DNA from: Histomonas meleagridis | Taxonomy: Eukaryota; Parabasalia; Tritrichomonadida; Dientamoebidae | DNA: 64,000 nt | NCBI GenBank assembly: GCA_020186115.1 | Contig: WSYJ01000052.1 | Span: forward strand, 248,001 to 312,000 | Direction: 5' to 3' | Shown: piece by piece, positions 4,165-14,900 of the stretch | Layout of the letters: each line of letters opens with the position of its first letter | Numbering within the stretch: the stretch's first letter is position 1 | The notes under the pieces: generated by a model | What the model was told of the DNA's origin: nothing | Seen by the model: the letters and a program-made list of their open reading frames with translations, nothing else | Databases searched by the model: none | Translations under genes and position numbers: made by a program

Positions 4165-7100
4165 TCAATGTATTAACAATTGATCTTCATCATGCCTAAT
4201 TACATTATTAAATTCATCATCAATATGTATTGTTTGCTTTTCGTTGTCTGATGAAGACTCAGAAAGGATTTCAGTAGTTTTGCTTGGAATTTTCTTACTT
4301 CTTCGAATTGTAAATATTATTATTCCAATGATCAATAAAACAGTGATAACCGAACCACAGATAATTCCTATTAATGCATTTGTTGAAATCTTTTTAGTTG
4401 GCTGAGATTGAGTTTGATAATATGTAAACATTATCAAAGAATAATCTAAGTTATAGAAAGAATACTGAATAATTGTGTATTCATAATGAATTATTTCTGT
4501 AGAGATAAAAGAGTCAAGTGTATTATATAATAAGGAATGTGTTAAATACATTGTGTAAACAGAATATGATTGAGTTAAATATATATAAAATGTAAATGTA
4601 TACGAATATGGATAAGTTATTATTGTATTTGACTTAGTGAATGTATTTGATTTAGTGAATGTATTTGATTTCGAAAATGTATTTGTAAATGTGTTTGTAT
4701 ATGTATTCGACTTTGTAAATGTGTGTGTTGACCATGGATATTGATCACATTCACCAAATGCTGTTCCTTTGGATATGTTAAGTTCTCCAAATGTTTCATT
4801 TTGATATAAATCGGATGTCATAATATATTGATTTTCAATATTATCAAAAGCATTATCTGCTACATTTGGAGTTATATAACCTAAAAAGTAAATACATGTG
4901 AGATTGCTGCATTGTGTAAATGCTTCTTTTTCAATAGAATTCACATTTTGACCAATAATAACTGTTCCTAATGAAGAACAATATTGAAATGCACGAGATT
5001 CAATCCTTGTTACTGAATCAGGAATTGTTATGTTTGTTAATGATAAACAATAAGAAAAAGCATTATTCCCAATAGAATTCACATTTTGACCAATAATTAC
5101 TGTTTCTAATGAGGAACAATATTGAAATGCACTAGATTCAAATGTTTCGACTGAATCAGGAATTGTTATATTTGTTAATAATGTGCAATAAGAAAATGCT
5201 GAATCTTTAATAGAATTCACATTTTGACCAATAATAACGATGCTTAAATTAGAACAATGTTGAAATACACTCTCTCCAATTGTTTCAACTGAATCAGGAA
5301 TTGTTATATTTGTTAATGATGTGCAATAAGAGAATGCATAATTCCCAATATAACTTACATTTTGACCAACAATAACTGTTCTTAATGAAGAACAATATTG
5401 AAATGCACGAGATTCAATCCTTGTTACTGAATCAGGAATTGTTATGTTTGTTAATGATAAACAATAAGAAAAAGCATTATTCCCAATAGAATTCACATTT
5501 TGACCAATAATTACTGTTTCTAATGAGGAACAATATTGAAATGCACGAGATTCAATCCTTGTTACTGAATCAGGAATTGTTATGTTTGTTAATGATAAAC
5601 AATAAGAAAAAGCATTATTCCCAATAGAATTCACATTTTGACCAATAATTACTGTTTCTAATGAGGAACAATATTGAAATGCACCAGATTCAATCCTTGT
5701 TACTGAATCAGGAATTGTTATGTTTGTTAATGATAAACAATAAGAAAAAGCATTATTCCCAATAGAATTCACATTTTGACCAATAATTACTGTTTCTAAT
5801 GAGGAACAATATTGAAATGCACCAGATTCAATCGTTGTTACTGAGTCAGGAATTGTTATGTTTATTAATGAGGAACATTTAGAAAATGCTGAAGCTCCAA
5901 TAGAATTTACTTTATCTCCAAAGATAACATTTTCTAAATTAATACATTCTTCAAAAGAATATGATCCAATTGTTGTTATATTTTCACCGATATAAACTAT
6001 TTTTAATGTTGTCCACTGTTTAAATGCTGTATTTCCAATTTTCATAAGTGAATCTGAGATTTTTATTGTATCATTTAATCTTCCTAATGGATAATAAACA
6101 ATTTCCGTATAATTTTTATCATAAAGAATTCCATCTCGTTCAGAATAATATGAATTATCTTGAGATACATTAATAAAATAAAGTTTAGTACAATTAGCAA
6201 ATACATTTTGTTCAATAGTATAAACTGATTTAGGAATTGTAATAATTTGTAATGAAATACATGAAAAAAATGCATATTCACCAATAAAATTTACATTTTC
6301 TCCAATAATAATATTTTCTAATTTAATACATGAAGAAAATGCAGAATTTTGAATTGATGTAACAGAATTTGGAATCGTTATATTTATCAATGAAGAACAT
6401 GATGAAAATGCATTACTTCCAATCGTTATTACATTATTTCCAATAGCAACATCAATTAATTTAATACAATTAGAAAATGCATTACTTCCAATCGTTTCGA
6501 CAGATTCACCAATAAATACTGTTTCAAGATTTTGACATTTATCAAAAGCATTGGACCCAATCGATATAATCGTATTCCCTATATCAACAGAAATTAAAGA
6601 AGGCCATTCTGAAAATGAGTTGGAATATATTGTATTAATTCCTCCTTGAATTATGAGATATTTTGTATCCTGTTTATATGTAGATCTTGTATTATAATCA
6701 TTTAAATTAATTATTGTAAGTGTTTTAGTATTTCCATCATATGCTGAAAATATTTGTTCAAAAAAGAAAATGAATAAAAGTGGTAAAATTTTAAATTTGC
6801 TTTTCTCTTTTGAAACAATATGAATAATTAATAATAAATAAGTTTTTAACATTAAAAATAAGATAAGAAAAACTATAGCAATAAATAAAATATTTGACAA
6901 AATTTTTTTGCATACGAAAGAAATTAAATTTAAAGAATTTTGACTAACATGCTGAAAACCATGACAAAATGAACCATTGATATTGGGAAGAGATATAACA
7001 GATTTTCTAGTTTCACATAAAATTTGAAGATATAAATCATATTTAGTTATAGTTATAATTTTTTGAACCAATGCACCATCCTTTGAATAAAGGTTATTTA

Positions 7101-7173
7101 AAACATCTGGAATGTAGTGTAATGTTTGCATATACGTTAAAAATAACAGGATGCGCGGAGAAACACCTTTCAT
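4165..7173 (-). CDS. BspA-like leucine-rich-repeat (LRR_5) surface membrane protein
   Basis: A 1002-codon frame. More than twenty 23-residue LRRs of the Treponema/BspA type (core N-I-T-I-P-D-S-V-T, A-F-x-x-C-x-S-L) fill about residues 150-780. A Thr/Ser/Tyr-rich region with repeated FTKSNT units follows (about 800-900). One membrane helix near 930-955 precedes a basic stop-transfer (RRSKK) and a cytoplasmic tail of about 45 residues rich in Ser/Asp/Glu. BspA-like proteins are a very large trichomonad surface family implicated in adhesion. The start is uncertain: the ATG at 7173 adds a 107-residue leader with a hydrophobic segment, while the ATG at 6852 would give a shorter protein with a signal-peptide-like N-terminus (hydrophobic run ending ...EQIFSA). 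Seven copies of a 46-residue unit are nearly identical, which points to recent expansion or gene conversion. Confidence 0.85.
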   Translation of the reverse strand: MKGVSPRILLFLTYMQTLHYIPDVLNNLYSKDGALVQKIITITKYDLYLQILCETRKSVISLPNINGSFCHGFQHVSQNSLNLISFVCKKILSNILFIAIVFLILFLMLKTYLLLIIHIVSKEKSKFKILPLLFIFFFEQIFSAYDGNTKTLTIINLNDYNTRSTYKQDTKYLIIQGGINTIYSNSFSEWPSLISVDIGNTIISIGSNAFDKCQNLETVFIGESVETIGSNAFSNCIKLIDVAIGNNVITIGSNAFSSCSSLINITIPNSVTSIQNSAFSSCIKLENIIIGENVNFIGEYAFFSCISLQIITIPKSVYTIEQNVFANCTKLYFINVSQDNSYYSERDGILYDKNYTEIVYYPLGRLNDTIKISDSLMKIGNTAFKQWTTLKIVYIGENITTIGSYSFEECINLENVIFGDKVNSIGASAFSKCSSLINITIPDSVTTIESGAFQYCSSLETVIIGQNVNSIGNNAFSYCLSLTNITIPDSVTRIESGAFQYCSSLETVIIGQNVNSIGNNAFSYCLSLTNITIPDSVTRIESRAFQYCSSLETVIIGQNVNSIGNNAFSYCLSLTNITIPDSVTRIESRAFQYCSSLRTVIVGQNVSYIGNYAFSYCTSLTNITIPDSVETIGESVFQHCSNLSIVIIGQNVNSIKDSAFSYCTLLTNITIPDSVETFESSAFQYCSSLETVIIGQNVNSIGNNAFSYCLSLTNITIPDSVTRIESRAFQYCSSLGTVIIGQNVNSIEKEAFTQCSNLTCIYFLGYITPNVADNAFDNIENQYIMTSDLYQNETFGELNISKGTAFGECDQYPWSTHTFTKSNTYTNTFTNTFSKSNTFTKSNTFTKSNTIITYPYSYTFTFYIYLTQSYSVYTMYLTHSLLYNTLDSFISTEIIHYEYTIIQYSFYNLDYSLIMFTYYQTQSQPTKKISTNALIGIICGSVITVLLIIGIIIFTIRRSKKIPSKTTEILSESSSDNEKQTIHIDDEFNNVIRHDEDQLLIH
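4570..4735 (-). repeat. Thr/Ser-rich FTKSNT stalk repeat
   Basis: Short degenerate in-frame repeats coding F-T-K-S-N-T or F-T-N-T between the LRR domain and the membrane helix. This is the usual place for an extended, potentially O-glycosylated stalk in trichomonad BspA-like membrane proteins. Confidence 0.7.
4900..5866 (-). repeat. 138-bp tandem repeat within the LRR gene
   Basis: About seven head-to-tail copies of a 138-bp unit, each coding two 23-residue LRRs. The marker ACATTTTGACC recurs at 138-bp steps (for example 5081 and 5495, exactly three units apart). Four of the copies are nearly identical, while the flanking LRRs are divergent. Confidence 0.9.
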
Positions 7174-7545: not shown

Positions 7546-7726
7546 TCTATTCCTGTAAAATCGTTCGTTTGAAGTTTCGAACTTTCAAATAACCTATTTG
7601 ATGTCATTTTGAATTTTGAGAAAAGGGTATCATTCGATTTCTCTCACTGTAACGGAGCTAAAGGCGAATTTTCAGCAAAAATAGAACTCTCCATCAAAAA
7701 ACAAAAAAAATTCACCTTCGACGGGA
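7546..7726 (-). repeat. Second, degenerate copy of the tRNA-adjacent element 5' end
   Basis: This 181-bp stretch matches 14662-14841 in the same orientation with scattered differences. It contains the same ATGGAGAGTTCTATTTTTGC start, but the frame here is broken by an early TGA and an indel. At its upstream (right) end it still carries 13 nt of the 3' end of tRNA-Lys (7714-7726, TCCCGTCGAAGGT on the minus strand). The match then stops inside the tRNA sequence. It is therefore a remnant of another copy of the element, or the far junction of the element next to the tRNA. Confidence 0.8.
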
Positions 7727-8175
7727 CTTGTTTATTCATTATCGTATGTTATTAGAGATATTATCTTTAATTATAGACGCGTCCGCCTTATTCTACTTCA
7801 TTTTGACTCTTGTTTTATTCGTAAACCAAATCTCGTCGGTTTTTTGAGAACTTTATTGATTGTCATGTTGGGGATGCCCTAACCCATCCTCAACATTATC
7901 GTCAACAAGTTCTTCTTGATTTACACCAACATCTTCTTGTAAATCATCGATTGAATCTTCTTCATCTGATGATGTTGGCTGAATGTTAATAGTAGTATCA
8001 TTTGCTGCACATTATTCTCTTTAAAACTCTTATATAATAACAACATAGATTCTCTTAAAGCAGCTACTGAACATCTTTTTGCTACTAATCTCGCTGTTCT
8101 TTCATTATTATATAATAGTTTTAATTCATGAAATGTTTCTTCGGTAATTGCACCTAACGAGGGTAATACGTAACC

Positions 8176-8822
8176 TGTACGCACTTTTTGCGGTTATCGC
8201 CTCAATTTCCCACTTTTTGAACGGCCTGACATCCTAACCGTTCGGAAACACGAAAATACGAAACACATTAAAACAAATGTATGAATTAGAAAATTCTGAA
8301 TATAACAAATTATAGTATATGCAGTACTTATTAGCATATTGAAATATTTTTGAAAAATATTCTATTTTTATCGAGATATAAGCATTAGAAAAAAATTGTC
8401 TTATTTTTTAAAATAAATATTATGAATCGAAAGTACATAATGAAAAACATATAACAGTATATTTTGTTTTTTTAAATATTTTGTTTATAAGCTTGTTTTT
8501 AAGTGTTTTGTTTCGCATATTTTTTGAAAGAGTATTCAAATTCAATGGGTATTCAATGATTTCTGAGTGTTGTTTTTCCCTCTGAAAATATGGTGATTAA
8601 ATTCTGAGAGCATTCAATTCCATTTATTATAAATTAAAATTAAAATATCGTGATATACTATTTACTTTAATCAACAAAAAAATGAATATTATGTTGTAAT
8701 ATTATATATTAGTAAATTTAATATAATATAATATTGCAATTAATAGAATTCTTGTGCATTCATTGTTCAATCTTTGTTTGCTCATTGTTTGTTCTCATTT
8801 ATTCTGGTTTGTTTTTTTAATT
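8176..8822 (+). repeat. MULE left terminal inverted repeat
   Basis: Reverse complement of 10976-11621 with a one-base length difference. A few substitutions are visible, for example GTGATTAAATTC here against GTGCTCAAATTC in the other arm. It contains CCCACTTTTTGAACGG near the tip, resembling host promoter-type motifs. Confidence 0.95.
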
Positions 8823-9774
8823 TATTCATATATATACATATTTATTCATTTTATATTTTTATTTGTTCATCGTTTATTCTTATTTATTCTTTGATTATTT
8901 TCATTAATCCAGTGATTATATTCATTATTTTATTGTTTATTCTTGTTTATTCATTGATCATATTTATTAATTCATTGATAATTCATCATTTATTCTTATT
9001 TGTTCATTATTTTTCTCAAATATTCATTGTTTATTCTTGTTTATTCATTAATTAATCTGTTTATTCATAATTTATTCTCATCAATTCATTTGTAATATTT
9101 TTTCTCATTGTTATTCATCTTTTATTCATGTTTTAGATGTTTAAGATGTTTTATCATTTTTACCCAATAATCATTAATGTTAAATATATTTTTTTATTAT
9201 TATTCACTAAATTTTAATGTTTAATGCATATTCTCATTGTTATTCATGATGTGTTCATAGTTGATATGTTTTCACAATATTATTCAATACATATTCATGC
9301 AATATATTATATCATTATTTTTTTATTGTTTATTAATATTTTATATATTTTTTATTATCATTATTTTTCATGTTCATATGATTTTTTCTTTTTATTCTTT
9401 GTTTTTGATTATGAATAGATTTTATCATTGTTTTGCATATTTTATTAATGTTTAATATGTTTTCTCGTTTCCATTTCTCCTTTATTTATGTTCAATATTT
9501 TTTTAATTTATTTTTTATTTCATATAATGCACTTTTTATTGTTCTGATTCATTATTTTTTCATTGTGTGTGTTTGTTTTCTCTTTCTTTCATTACTTGTA
9601 ATGTTAATGCGTTTTTTCTTTACTAATATAATCTTTTTTATCTTTCAATATTATATTTTTTTAATATTTTTTGATATTTTTTATTATTATTAATTCGTAT
9701 TTCTATTTTTAATTCTTATTCAAGTGTTTAATCTTTTTTAATTATCTTAATTTTTCTATTGTTAATTTTCATTT
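8823..9774. other. T-rich degenerate repeat region inside the MULE
   Basis: Low-complexity sequence built of imperfect TTTATTCATT/TTATTCTTG words. Several short open frames here have Phe/Ile/Tyr-only composition and are by-products of base composition. I see no gene. A complementary AAT/AAC-rich stretch (about 10748-10975) sits next to the right TIR. Confidence 0.7.
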
Positions 9775-10747
9775 TTATTTCTTGGCGATTTCTTTATTGT
9801 TTATTATGATATAATTGCTTTTTGTTATTTCAAATATTGGAACAATAATTTTAATATTCTTAAATATATTAGTATTATCTAAGATTGAAAAATATGTTAT
9901 ATTTTCTTTGCTGATAGCATTGTCAAATAAAGGATATTTCCTAGAATTATCAATGCATCTACAAAATTTAGTTACCTCATTATGTTCTATTTCTTTAGTA
10001 AAATCAGGATAAATATGGTTTTCAGATAATTTTGAATTATTATATGTATTTTTATATTCACCTTCCATTTTAACAATTTCTGAATAGAAGCTTAAAATTG
10101 TAGGACACTTCATTAGTTTGGAGTTAATTTTTTTATTGAAGCTTTCATTTATATTATGAGTTGCTCTGTGACTCATAATTTTTTCACTAATATTCCAATC
10201 ATTATTTATATCAAATTTTTTTGTATAAGTTGAAATAAAGTAATCAACAAACTCTGAAGATTCTTTTGAAAAATATGATATCTTTGGAAGAAATAAAATT
10301 ACCTTTTTAGCACATTCTATGTCAATAAGTGGTAATAATTTTATTAATTTATAAAGTTGCTGAGTAAAAAAACGAAATCTTTTGGATAAGATTGATAATA
10401 ATTTTTCGCGAATAGCTTTGCAAAAATGAAAATAACATAATTGTATAGAGTTTGAATTTGTTACAAATATGTTCTTTATTGCATTGATTTCAGCTAATTC
10501 AAAATCACGAATGAATTTTACATTTTGATGAAACTTAATATTAAGGTATTTTTAGTGCATTTAAATATGTTTTGAATGCTAATAAATATGTTTTGCTATT
10601 TTTGTTTGGCAAAATCAAATATAATAATGGAATATTTAAAAAACGAGATATTCCAATGAAAATGCATACCTGATAAAATCCATTCGGCGCTGGATGGAAA
10701 GTACCATCTATGCCAATTATTTTGCATTCGCATACACGTTGTAACAT
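9775..10747 (-). pseudogene. MULE transposase fragment, frameshifted
   Basis: Two overlapping frames. The first (10747-10541) begins with MLQRVCECKIIGIDGTF, containing the first catalytic Asp in a D-G-T-F context. A one-base slip in an A-run near 10545-10550 separates it from the second frame (about 10540-9775). The second frame carries FIRDFELAEINA, with the second catalytic Asp in the typical R-D-F-E setting, then the C-x2-H of CYFHFCKAI, and near the C-terminal end THNINESFNKKIN. These are the hallmark blocks of Mutator-family transposases. The N-terminal DNA-binding part (usually a zinc finger and about 200 residues) is missing, so the copy is non-autonomous. Confidence 0.8.
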
Positions 10748-10975
10748 AAAATGAGAATTATAAACAAGAATTAGTGATAATAAATATAAGCAAACAAATG
10801 AATAACTAAATGAGAATAATCAATGAAAAATCAAGAACAAACAATAAACAAAAGATAAATAAACAAGAATAAGCAATAATTAAGCAGAATAAATTATGAA
10901 TAAATGATAATAAACGAGAACAAACAAGAATTATTTGAAAAAATGAACAAGAATAAGCAAGAATAAATATAAATG

Positions 10976-11621
10976 AATTAAAAAAACAAACCAGAATAAA
11001 TGAGAACAAACAATGAGCAAACAAAGATTGAACAATGAATGCACAAGAATTCTATTAATTGCAATATTATATTATATTAAATTTACTAATATATAATATT
11101 ACAACATAATATTCATTTTTTGTTGATTAAAGTAAATAGTATATCAAGATATTTTAATTTTAATTTATAATAAATGGAATTGAATGCTCTCAGAATTTGA
11201 GCACCATATTTTCAGAGGGAAAAAACAACACTCAGAAATCATTGAATACCCATTGAATTTGAATACTCTTTCAAAAATATGCGAAACAAAACACTTAAAA
11301 ACAAGCTTATAAACAAAATATTTAAAAAAACAAAATATACTGTTATATGTTTTTCATTATGTACTTTCGATTCATAATATTTATTTTAAAAAATAAGACA
11401 ATTTTTTTCTAATGCTTATATCTCGATAAAAATAGAATATTTTTCAAAAATATTTCAATATGCTAATAAGTACTGCATATACTATAATTTGTTATATTCA
11501 GAATTTTCTAATTCATACATTTGTTTTAATGTGTTTCGTATTTTCGTGTTTCCGAACGGTTAGGATGTCAGGCCGTTCAAAAAGTGGGAAATTGAGGCGA
11601 TAACCGCAAAAAGTGCGTACA
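10976..11621 (-). repeat. MULE right terminal inverted repeat
   Basis: 646 bp, the inverted counterpart of 8176-8822. The homology ends at GTTTGTTTTTTTAATT; inside that point the two subterminal regions are only compositionally similar. Confidence 0.95.
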
Positions 11622-14600
11622 GATTACGCATTTCCTGTGTTTTATATTTTAATACTATAATCCTTTAAATATAACTAGTAATTTCTGATAAATTCCTAAT
11701 CATATTGTTTTGTTTTCTAATTGTTTCTTTTTTTCTATCCTTGATTTTGTTCTTATTAATAGATTTACCTAACATCTTTTCTAAAGGAATATGTAAAGTT
11801 TTTCTAATAGTTTTTCTAATTAATAAATTCATTTTGGCTAATCCTCCTTCAAAAATTATCCATTCTGTTTCACTTTCATTTATTGGTGTACATTTCTTTA
11901 ATATTGAAATTATTTTATTTCTCATACATTCTTTGATTGGGATAATAAGTTTTTGTCTATAGTTTTTAGTAAGTTTAGGTAAATGAATCTCATTTTGTTA
12001 TTCTATTTCTACCCTATTTAACCATTTTCTACATTTTATTAGTATATCATTTCATTCTTCTGAAATTATTTGTTGTTCTTCTTGTGTCATTTTTATATTT
12101 TCTACTTGTTGTCGTTCCTGATTTATATTTTGTTGTTCTTCTTGATTATTTAATTGTTCTCGATTATTATTTTGTAGTATATCTTGATTATTTGATTGTT
12201 CTTGTTGAATGACAGTTTGATTTTGTATAAAAATATTATTATTTCTATTAATTTCTTTATTATTTTGTTGATTGATATTATTATTTCTATTATTGAAGTG
12301 ATTATTATTGTTATCATCTGTTAATTGTTCTTGAGCTTTAATTTCATTTTCAATCTCATCAATTTGTTTTTGTAACAGAATTCTGAATATTGTGGATTTA
12401 ATTATAATCTTTTGTTTTGGGATAATTGTTCCTTTTATTCTTGAATCACTATGCATTGAAGATGCATGTAATTTGAAGTTTTTTTCATTAGCTGTAATTG
12501 TCTTTTTACAATAACCACATAATAAACCAATTGTTTCTTTCATTAATTCTTTGATATTTGGTGTTCTATTAACTTGATTAATTCAATATTTAATAGTCGC
12601 CCAAATCCATCCTATTTATGATTTTTTATCAACTATATATTTGTGTTTGGTTTTCATATGTGAAGAAAATGAACCCTGATTCATAGTAAAATAATCACAA
12701 TTTGGACAGAAGCAAAAATAATAATTCGAATGATAACTTTGATGTTGGTCTTGTAAATTAACTTGTTCCCAATAATTATTCATTAAACTTAAAAAATTTA
12801 AAAATTCTAACATTGTACAACCTGGAAATGTTTTATTATGTACTTGTTTCTCATGATATTTCAAATGAGGTACACATGTAAATGCTTCTCCATCTCCTTG
12901 TGTACATACAAAAGGTCCTACACCTGGCCAACCTTTTTCGAATGCTATAATATTTAAAATTGGTATTTTAAATCTATTATTATTGCACATGAATAAGTTC
13001 TCGTTTAAATCATTATTCTTCCATTTATTAATTACTAATTTAATTTCTTCTTTAGTATTCGCATTCCTAATATCATTTAATAAATTTTCTGGTGTTAAAT
13101 CTTCTTCATTATTAATATTATTATTATTATTATTTCCATTATTGTGATTATTATTATTTAAATTGATGTTATTGATTTGATTTTGATTTTGATTTTGATT
13201 TTCTTGTGGAATATTATTGTTATTGTATCCTAAGAATGTAATATTTGAGTTTAGTTGATTTTGATTATTATTGTTATTTTGATTTTGAGTTTCATCATTA
13301 TTTAGATTTATATTAATATTAATATTTGGTAAATTATAGTTTGGGATTGGAAAAATGATATCTTTTTCTACAAATTTAATTTTTGGTACTTCTATAATTT
13401 GTTCATTAACTCTAATCTGTGGAATATTGAATGGCACAATTTCTTCATTGTAATAAGGTATAACAACATTGATTTCTTCATTATTGATTTTGAAATCTGG
13501 AATATCAATAAGGTATTCTTCAACTTTTATTACTGGTAAATCACAATTTATGTTTTATGTGTAATAGAGAAATTAGGAACATTAACATTAACATTAACTG
13601 GATATTGTTTAACTTGTAGAACATGAGAAATGTTCTTATTTGGTCTAATTTTGTTATTTAAGAATTGTAATGTGTCAGGTCTGATTGATAATGTTCTATT
13701 TATAATTCGAAAAGTATCTGGTGGTAAAATTGGACCTCGATAAGAACATATATTTGAGATCTCAATATTGATGTTATTTTGTTCGATGATTAATATCCAA
13801 TATGGTAAATCAATTTCAGTAAAATCTTTGTTTTCATAATGTTCATTAATCAAATAAATTTCTCTCCGAGCATCTGGATTAATATTATTGAATATTCCAA
13901 AATCAACTTGTGTTTTTAATGAATTTAATGCTGTCGGTAATTTTCCGTAAGTTTTTGTCCATGAAAAGATTAACGTCCAAAATAATCCAACGGTTTGTAA
14001 AGAATTCATAATTATTTCTGAACTGTGCGTGTGATTTACATGGTTGATTAATTTAAAATTGTCAGAAATAATTTTATAACAATTTGGAAACGGACAGAAT
14101 CTTTTAAAATTTTTTGATTATATAATGTACTTGTTTTTAGTCAATAATCTTTGTATGATTCTTTCGTGAAAGAGTAATTCTTGATTAGGGTCGATACCAT
14201 GTTCTTCTGACAAGTGTTTTAACAATATTTGAAAGTTTTCTGTGAAAAAATTACATTCTGGAACTAATGAACAACAAAATGGTTCGGGTAATGGGATATC
14301 ACGAAATTCATTTAATTTGAATAATTGAGAAATTGGGAAATTTAAAAAATTATAAATTAATAATAAATTTTGTTGTAACCAAATGTTAGGCTATGGTATT
14401 CGTCTCTTAATTGCTTTGATAATAATTCTTTTAATTTCTTCTTTGTTGGAAAAATCTTTATTAATTATATAATTTTGTAAAAAGTTTTGTGATGTTCGAT
14501 CTGTAATAATTTCTTTGTTATCTCTGTGATAATTTTCATTAATATCCCATATATTAGTCTTATCTTGTAATACATGGTCGAACTTTAAAATATAAATATC

Positions 14601-14661
14601 TTCATAATTATTCGTAATTATATATTCGTTTCCTGTTGATTGTAATCTAGAGGTATGATCC

Positions 14662-14841
14662 TCTATTCCTGTAAAATTGTTAGTCTGAAGTTTTGAATTT
14701 CCGAATAATCTATCTGATGAAAATTCGAATTTTAAGGAGAAGATATCATTCGATTTCTCTCCCTGTAACGGAGCTAAAGACGAATTCTCAGCAAAAATAG
14801 AACTCTCCATCAAAAAACAAAAAAATTCACCTTCGACGGGA
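14662..14841 (-). repeat. Direct repeat: tRNA-Lys 3' end plus element 5' end
   Basis: The better-preserved copy of the 180-bp repeat also found at 7546-7726. It includes the last 13-14 nt of the tRNA-Lys gene, its T-run, and the first 50 or so codons of the zinc-finger element frame. The two copies are about 7.1 kb apart in the same orientation. Confidence 0.85.
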
Positions 14842-14900
14842 TTCGAACCCGCAACCCCAGGATTAAAAGTCCTATGCTCTAACCGTTGAGCTACGAAGGT
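14828..14900 (-). tRNA. tRNA-Lys (anticodon TTT)
   Basis: A 73-nt cloverleaf: acceptor ACCTTCG pairs with CGAAGGT, and the D-arm begins TAGCTCAACGG (matches an A box). The anticodon loop CTTTTAA (14869-14863) gives anticodon TTT at 14867-14865. The T-arm GCGGGTTCGAATCCCGT matches a B box; the discriminator base is G. A T7 run directly downstream (minus strand) serves as a Pol III terminator. There is no intron, and CCA is not encoded. The ATG of the adjacent zinc-finger element is only 17 nt downstream of the tRNA end. Confidence 0.97.

What the first reader, a model, noticed from the sequence alone, without database searches (positions are those of the whole stretch)
7546..14900. Zinc-finger element abutting the 3' end of tRNA-Lys, with a second copy carrying tRNA sequence
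Seen: an element ORF starts 17 nt after a complete tRNA-Lys gene, and a second copy of its 5' end 7.1 kb away, same orientation, still includes 13 nt of the tRNA 3' end. That is the geometry of site-specific insertion at a tRNA 3' end, with head-to-tail copies or att-like core repeats. Inference: a trichomonad element that targets tRNA-Lys. Its coding region has 3-4 zinc fingers and no recognisable recombinase.
Basis: partly seen in the sequence, partly recalled or inferred. Interest (0 to 1): 0.75.

Follow-up and report, generated by a model that had tools for sequence, protein, structure and literature searches.

The report
Retrotransposon family targeting tRNA gene ends
This is a broken copy of a copy-and-paste mobile element that inserts right behind one kind of lysine tRNA gene in a poultry parasite; relatives in the same genome do the same, at the matching position, behind four other kinds of tRNA gene and, to judge from their end tags, two more, while the tRNA gene itself stays whole.

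Summary
The window (Histomonas meleagridis) carries a 7.1-kb element directly 3' of tRNA-Lys(UUU); its far end repeats the last 14 nt of that tRNA, followed by the 5' stub of another copy. It is not a recombinase island. Better preserved copies encode zinc fingers, a reverse transcriptase and an R2-type restriction-like endonuclease (RLE): a site-specific non-LTR retrotransposon. In the window copy a long-TIR MULE-like element sits in place of the RT region. Copies abut 6 of 11 tRNA-Lys(UUU) genes and 0 of 14 tRNA-Lys(CUU) genes found. Sister lineages sit at tRNA-Ile, -Met, -Asn and -Tyr (both junctions seen) and probably -Arg and -Cys (3' tag), with the same 14-nt stretch (tRNA positions 60-73). 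An empty/filled pair at tRNA-Ile shows the insertion with both flanks. 20 of 23 sampled 3' regions carry a tag, controls 0. The element brings its own T-run where the tRNA terminator stood; in some lineages that T-run appears to be the start of the ORF. A relative on a MAG contig ends in the tRNA-Asn tag. tRNA-specific RLE retrotransposons are known (NeSL-1_TV, planarian LIN), so this is a new variant of a known kind: many targets, one cut geometry.

The parts
14828..14900 (-). intact tRNA-Lys(UUU) gene, the insertion target
   Evidence: ARAGORN; Rfam tRNA 71.9 bits
14828..14841 (-). target-site sequence, first copy (tRNA positions 60-73)
7727..14827 (-). tRNA-Lys-specific non-LTR retrotransposon, degraded; 5' end at 14827, 3' end at 7727 (...AATAAACAAG)
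14391..14810 (-). first open piece of the element ORF (MESSIFAEN..., 139 codons)
14199..14276 (-). C2H2-type zinc-finger motif
   Evidence: pattern scan
14025..14096 (-). C2H2-type zinc-finger motif
   Evidence: pattern scan; about the same place in the L012 copy matches PF16159 at E 7.9e-06, under the cut-off
12643..12714 (-). C2H2-type zinc-finger motif
   Evidence: pattern scan; PF13909 E 0.00029, under the cut-off
12451..12519 (-). C2H2-type zinc-finger motif
   Evidence: pattern scan
8162..11635 (.). nested long-TIR MULE-like element in place of about 2.7 kb of retrotransposon (RT region) present in L012
   Evidence: inverted arms 8162-8860 / 10938-11635; MULE PF10551 E 0.0092, below cut-off; comparison with L012
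7713..7726 (-). target-site duplication, second copy (TCCCGTCGAAGGTG)
7546..7712 (-). stub of the 5' end of another, presumably older, copy of the same element (head-to-tail)

Best explanation
A site-specific, RLE-encoding non-LTR retrotransposon of the R2/NeSL kind, specific for tRNA-Lys(UUU), one of at least five and probably seven tRNA-specific lineages in the Histomonas genome. Inferred mechanism: N-terminal zinc fingers (with the RT and linker) read the tRNA gene. The RLE nicks the bottom strand in the T-loop region, between tRNA positions 59 and 60. The RT copies the element RNA from its 3' end (Lys: ...AATAAACAA) on that primer. The top strand is cut 14 bp further, at the end of the mature tRNA sequence. 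The result is: complete tRNA, element, last 14 nt of the tRNA, old trailer. The tRNA gene stays whole, and a T-run at the start of the element stands where the terminator stood, so the next insertion can use the same gene and older copies are pushed outward as head-to-tail arrays; the 7546 stub would be such an older copy. SHOWN: anatomy, targets, 14-nt duplication, RT and RLE homology and predicted fold, one empty/filled pair. INFERRED: order of cuts, the role of the fingers, terminator function of the T-run, age order in arrays, current activity.
For: Protein: RVT_1 E 1.8e-36. PDB best hits are R2 by sequence (E 2.7e-43; 16-row profile 7.4e-119); a second stretch over the RLE aligns to R2 9nl3 only weakly (i-Evalue 0.1). 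The AlphaFold model (pLDDT 80.2, pTM 0.75) matches R2 structures over about 816 of 851 columns, E 1e-36, ahead of LINE-1 at 3e-20 (aligned ranges not printed). YADD, CCHC, RHN and KPD..IIEV in L011. Target: 6 of 11 tRNA-Lys(UUU) filled, 0 of 14 tRNA-Lys(CUU). Sisters with both junctions: Ile, Met, Tyr, Asn. 3' tag: Arg (L072), Cys (L073), with a matching tRNA-Arg in L072 and tRNA-Cys 3.6 kb upstream. Tag in 20 of 23 fetched 3' regions, controls 0. Empty/filled pair at tRNA-Ile. Other organism: L104 ends at the tRNA-Asn tag plus a T-run.
Against: No Lys copy seen has an intact full-length ORF, so activity is unproven. The C15 Lys pair lacks its 3' side: the 3' flank of the empty site occurs only there, and the stretch fetched at the expected 3' end of the C15 copy has no tag (L101). 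Three of 23 3' regions had no tag (L080, L083, L085; L085 has a variant 2 nt shorter). The tags were defined partly from these same regions. The 5' junction was not seen for Arg and only 15 nt of it for Cys. RHN and KPD patterns used on L011 were not met in L104, nor KPD in L105. RT counts come from 53 scored of 187 candidates.
Confidence: 0.93

Rival explanations
1. A recombinase-integrated genomic island or virus-like element with att sites at the tRNA 3' end.
For: tRNA 3'-end location, direct repeats at both ends, head-to-tail copies.
Against: Relatives encode RT and RLE. Pfam found no recombinase in the ORFs scanned, apart from a DDE_1 transposase that I take for a nested element in L013. 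The repeat shared by tRNA and far end is 14 nt, with element-specific sequence right after the tRNA.
Confidence: 0.02
2. Position-specific retrotransposition by tethering to the Pol III machinery, as in Dictyostelium TRE5-A, rather than reading of the tRNA gene sequence.
For: All targets are tRNA genes and the cut lies at the 3' edge of the B box (Pol III use and B-box position recalled).
Against: Insertion is exact to the base and differs between isoacceptors (Lys-UUU 6 of 11, Lys-CUU 0 of 14). In the copies fetched each lineage sits at one tRNA. Tagged TRE5-A inserts at 384 of 405 tRNA genes and targets about 47 bp upstream (PMC5391098 abstract). A mixed model (Pol III factor plus sequence) is not excluded.
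Confidence: 0.1
3. Copies spread by segmental duplication or unequal exchange of tRNA-plus-element blocks, not by repeated insertion.
For: C84 (3' ends) and C15 and C61 (tRNA flanks) carry inverted duplicates; arrays have a fairly regular 6-7.7-kb period.
Against: 5' flanks differ at most of the 11 Lys loci, and trailers after the 14-nt tag differ between copies (Lys, Ile, Met). The empty/filled pair shows a real insertion. Exchange may still lengthen arrays.
Confidence: 0.05

Closest known systems
NeSL-1_TV (tRNA-Pro-specific; '_TV' = Trichomonas vaginalis by Repbase naming, recalled)
   Same: RLE non-LTR retrotransposon specific for a tRNA gene, probably also in a parabasalid (PMC4640811, section 10 read)
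   Different: One family, tRNA-Pro; its junctions are in a supplement that I could not read. Here other tRNAs, one shared cut position.
Planarian LIN15_SM (tRNA-Arg) and LIN25_SM (tRNA-Glu), LIN/R5 lineage
   Same: tRNA-specific RLE elements, with several targets among related families in one host
   Different: Animal lineage; junctions not compared here.
R2 (28S rDNA)
   Same: RT, linker and RLE order and predicted fold; N-terminal zinc fingers
   Different: Target tRNA, not 28S. The RT rows fall outside the two vertebrate R2 rows used. The ORF is longer (at least 1,832 codons in the relative L104; R2 chains of 1,114-1,390 aa).
Dictyostelium TRE5-A
   Same: tRNA-associated non-LTR retrotransposon
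   Different: Inserts about 47 bp upstream at nearly any tRNA gene (PMC5391098 abstract).
Dada DNA transposons
   Same: Families each inside a particular tRNA or snRNA gene; Perkinsus marinus has five, all in tRNA genes (PMC3706591 passages)
   Different: DNA transposons with a 6-7-bp duplication.

Membership tests
RLE-encoding non-LTR retrotransposon (R2/NeSL superclade) | non-LTR type reverse transcriptase | tested here: met
   PF00078 E 1.8e-36; best PDB hits R2, then LINE-1
RLE-encoding non-LTR retrotransposon (R2/NeSL superclade) | C-terminal CCHC plus PD-(D/E)xK-type RLE | tested here: met
   CHKC..H..C and KPD..IIEV in L011 (the strict KPD pattern was not met in L104 or L105); predicted fold aligned to R2 over about 816 columns. 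No nuclease assay.
RLE-encoding non-LTR retrotransposon (R2/NeSL superclade) | N-terminal zinc fingers | tested here: met
   4 C2H2 motifs in the window copy, 3 each in L104 and L105; Pfam zinc-finger hits all under the cut-offs
RLE-encoding non-LTR retrotransposon (R2/NeSL superclade) | insertion at a fixed site, with duplication or alteration of the target | tested here: met
R2 clade proper | RT groups with R2; 28S target | tested here: not met
   two R2 rows (partial, vertebrate) fall apart from the 46-row set that holds all seven lineages (100/99); target is tRNA
NeSL clade / NeSL-1_TV lineage | RT groups with NeSL-1_TV or NeSL-1 | not testable with these tools
   no labelled NeSL sequence was at hand; the paper itself found the place of NeSL-1_TV unresolved
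tyrosine or serine recombinase island | recombinase gene | tested here: not met
   none by Pfam in the element ORFs scanned
TRE5-A-like position-specific element | insertion at a distance from nearly any tRNA gene | tested here: not met
   exact junction; 6 of 11 Lys-UUU and 0 of 14 Lys-CUU

The most novel reading that the evidence does not exclude
One retrotransposon clade has taken on at least five, probably seven, different tRNA genes in one genome while keeping a fixed cut geometry in tRNA coordinates (nicks at 59/60 and after 73), so specificity sits in an exchangeable reading module (zinc fingers) and the cut in a fixed one. The element also solves the terminator problem with its own first codons: the ORF starts within 2 nt of the tRNA end in the Tyr and Met lineages and uses the tRNA's last A in Ile, and the Phe-rich N-terminus (MDFLFFSPE / MDHFLFFSPE) is the T-run that would end Pol III transcription of the tRNA, so one stretch serves as protein code and as terminator.
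Probability: 0.4. Interest if true: 0.8.

Novelty: new variant of a known kind. Interest (0 to 1): 0.62.

Why it matters
A natural series of related retrotransposons that share one cut geometry but read different short, well-known genes is what one would want in order to learn how RLE retrotransposons recognise DNA, a question made practical by the use of R2 for transgene insertion. It also suggests how a compact genome can host many large insertions harmlessly. The published H. meleagridis annotation lists only 32 or 23 retroelements (5,358 or 2,568 bp; PMC8529796 passages), so this class was probably missed.

Tried and rejected
Recombinase or virus-like element: dropped once RT and RLE appeared in better preserved copies. 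Both ends were seen in four Lys copies (window, L009, L011, L012); the others are truncated, rearranged or cut by the contig end.

C15 empty/filled pair: 5' side 99% over 1,505 columns, 3' side not recovered, so the Ile pair carries the argument.

Age gradient in arrays (younger copies nearer the tRNA): not tested; stop counts show no clear trend. Viral contigs: 107 stretches matched a pattern, none a relative. Tree support for an Asn pair across organisms is weak (95/61), and the seven tRNA rows do not form one clade (6 label changes; the other rows' targets are unknown). An Asn pattern found nothing because it assumed GG before TTC, where the gene has TG; the tRNA was then seen in 3 of 4 regions fetched at expected 5' ends (L093 had none).

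Literature: ten searches used. No paper on tRNA-targeted elements of Histomonas was listed in them; two of them named Histomonas. Seen: PMC4640811 (passages and section 10), PMC5035012, PMC3706591, PMC8529796, PMC10045372 (passages), PMC5391098 (abstract and outline).
Full report
WHAT IS IN THE WINDOW. The tRNA-Lys(TTT) gene is at 14828-14900 on the minus strand. Read in that direction, tRNA positions 60-73 are TCCCGTCGAAGGTG (14841-14828). The next base, 14827, starts an element whose first long frame opens at 14810. The same 14 nt recur at 7726-7713, preceded by ...AATGAATAAACAAG (the element's 3' end, 7727) and followed by AATTTTTTTTGTTTTTTGATGGAGAG..., the 5' end of another copy, which survives only to 7546. 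A long-TIR element (arms 8162-8860 and 10938-11635) with a weak MULE match (E 0.0092, under the cut-off) stands where L012 has about 2.7 kb of further sequence. That is why no enzyme could be read in this copy.

WHAT THE ELEMENT IS. Genome searches found other copies. L011 (C120) holds an open 851-codon stretch. It matches RVT_1 (E 1.8e-36). By sequence its best PDB relatives are R2 proteins (E 2.7e-43, LINE-1 about 1e-25; with a 16-row profile 7.4e-119 and about 5e-53). The second stretch, over the RLE, aligns to R2 only weakly by sequence (i-Evalue 0.1 for 9nl3, 50 for 9nl2). The predicted structure (pLDDT 80.2, pTM 0.75) aligns with R2 complexes over about 816 columns at E about 1e-36 (ranges not printed). 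YADD, CCHC, RHN and KPD..IIEV are present in L011; the same patterns were not all met in the relatives L104 (no RHN, no KPD) and L105 (no KPD). Zinc-finger motifs lie upstream: four in the window copy, three in each of two relatives; Pfam matches to them are under the cut-offs. In L104 one frame runs for 1,832 codons and is open at the contig start. So this is an RLE-type non-LTR retrotransposon.

TARGET. A tRNA-Lys query gave 26 matches: 11 complete Lys(UUU) genes, 14 Lys(CUU) genes and the window stub (CUU read by ARAGORN in L028, and by eye in the other 13). Six of the 11 are followed by the element and none of the 14 is, judged by the printed flanks. In 600 bp upstream of the 11 loci only two pairs are alike.

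SISTER LINEAGES. The RT protein gave 69 matches (53 of 187 candidates scored), which I grouped into 45 clusters. Thirty-one have one of the target tRNAs upstream on the same strand within 25 kb; the tRNA list given to that script held only tRNAs already seen or suspected as targets, so this is a tally, not a test. Seven more (C102, C16 minus, C54 first, C61 minus, C8 first, C83, C84 plus) have a tRNA tag at their 3' end. One (C68) was examined and had none, and six were not examined. Both junctions by sequence: Ile and Met (ARAGORN), Tyr (ARAGORN printed tRNA-???, anticodon GTA and intron read by eye; 6 of 6 loci opened, of 11 pattern hits, are followed by the element) and Asn (anticodon GTT by eye; 3 of 4 regions fetched). 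By 3' tag: Arg (L072, with an intact tRNA-Arg(ACG) of the same 3' end beside it; what follows that tRNA was not identified) and Cys (L073; tRNA-Cys, anticodon GCA by eye, 3.6 kb upstream of the RT). Of 23 3' regions outside the Lys set, 20 carry one of the seven 14-mers within one edit. Reversed tags and the opposite strand gave 0. The misses are L080, L083 and L085, the last with a form 2 nt shorter. The tags were partly learned from these regions, several regions are near-copies of each other, and the control speaks to chance only.

EMPTY SITE. C61 holds two tRNA-Ile genes with the same flanks in opposite orientation, one empty and one filled. The 5' side (flank, tRNA and start of the T-run) matches at 97.9% over 190 columns, the 3' side (14-nt tag and flank) at 99.6% over 501. 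The filled site has a complete tRNA, the element, TCCCTGCGGGACCA, then the old trailer. This fixes the insertion at 14 bp of duplication, tRNA 60-73. A Lys pair on C15 agrees on the 5' side (99% over 1,505 columns, tRNA included) but its 3' side was not recovered.

FIVE-PRIME END. After the tRNA each lineage has its own T-run. In Ile and Met this clearly differs from the native T-run kept after the 14-nt tag at the other end, so the element brings it; in Lys the two are similar. With the last tRNA base as offset 0, ATG starts at 0 in Ile (4 of 4), 1 in Tyr (5 of 6), 3 in Met (5 of 5), 14-20 in Lys (6 of 6) and 17-18 in Asn (5 of 5; none in the 57 nt available of L104). The frame from it is open to the end of the fetched DNA in 2 of 6 Tyr copies (500 codons) and 1 of 4 Ile copies (159). 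It reaches 107 codons and then a stop in 2 of 5 Met copies, 357 in the best Lys copy and 376 in the best Asn copy. Other copies break earlier, four of them by a changed T-run length (L054, L058, L059, L088). The Arg stretch in L072 gave only 4 codons and Cys was too short. The Tyr and Met starts read MDFLFFSPE and MDHFLFFSPE; apart from the extra codon their base differences there (compared by eye) are silent, which points to coding use. That this T-run also ends tRNA transcription is inference.

ARRAYS. RT matches recur at about 6-7.7 kb on one strand (C65, C54, C120, C8, C112, C16, C61, C92). At joints the order is 3' end, tRNA tag, T-run, 5' end of the next copy (L068, L070, L071). New insertion at the tRNA pushing older copies outward explains this and the window stub; exchange between copies is not excluded.

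BEYOND THIS GENOME. 696 proteins matched (best 120 listed). All seven lineages fall in a 46-row set (100/99) apart from the two R2 rows. They are mixed there with unnamed proteins (P0001 with Tyr, P0008 with Ile, P0023 with Cys, and less surely P0037 with Met), so the seven are not shown to be one clade. In genome contigs, 3 of 13 loci (L104-L106, stray contigs in a bacterial MAG) are clear relatives (37-38% identity). L104 ends at CCACACGGGAGGAG plus a T-run, the tRNA-Asn tag, and groups with the Histomonas Asn lineage only weakly (95/61).

HOST. A ribosomal protein of the window is 99% identical to that of Histomonas meleagridis. The genome paper counts 32 and 23 retroelements, 5,358 and 2,568 bp (PMC8529796 passages).

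NOVELTY. tRNA-specific RLE retrotransposons are in print: NeSL-1_TV (tRNA-Pro), LIN15_SM, LIN25_SM (PMC4640811, section 10). In ten literature searches I did not see a set of lineages in one genome that read five to seven tRNAs with one cut geometry, or the coding T-run. Most subscription journals and the supplements are outside what I could search.

Noticed in passing
window 8162-11635: Nested element with about 700-bp inverted arms (99% in the outer 363 bp) and a MULE-like coding remnant; its arm has 32 match rows in the genome, the window's own two arms included.
   Followed up: partly
window 4165-7173 (-): 1,002-codon ORF of tandem leucine-rich repeats, BspA-like by eye, next to the element stub.
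   Followed up: no
L013:3848-5010 (C15): A DDE_1 transposase piece (PF03184 E 2.5e-18), apparently nested inside another tRNA-Lys element.
   Followed up: partly
C84:1501-6060 and C84:15750-22064: Two Lys-element copies in opposite orientation with the same 3' flank: an inverted duplication near the contig end, or an assembly effect.
   Followed up: partly
L104-L106: Three retrotransposon contigs of eukaryotic type binned into a Lachnospiraceae MAG (CAMWTP01): probably contamination.
   Followed up: partly
3' ends, window 7727 and L063-L084, L117: Ile, Arg, Cys and Lys copies end in TAAACA just before the 14-nt tag, Tyr has it a few bases further in, Met and Asn have A-rich variants: a candidate 3' signal for the reverse transcriptase.
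   Followed up: no
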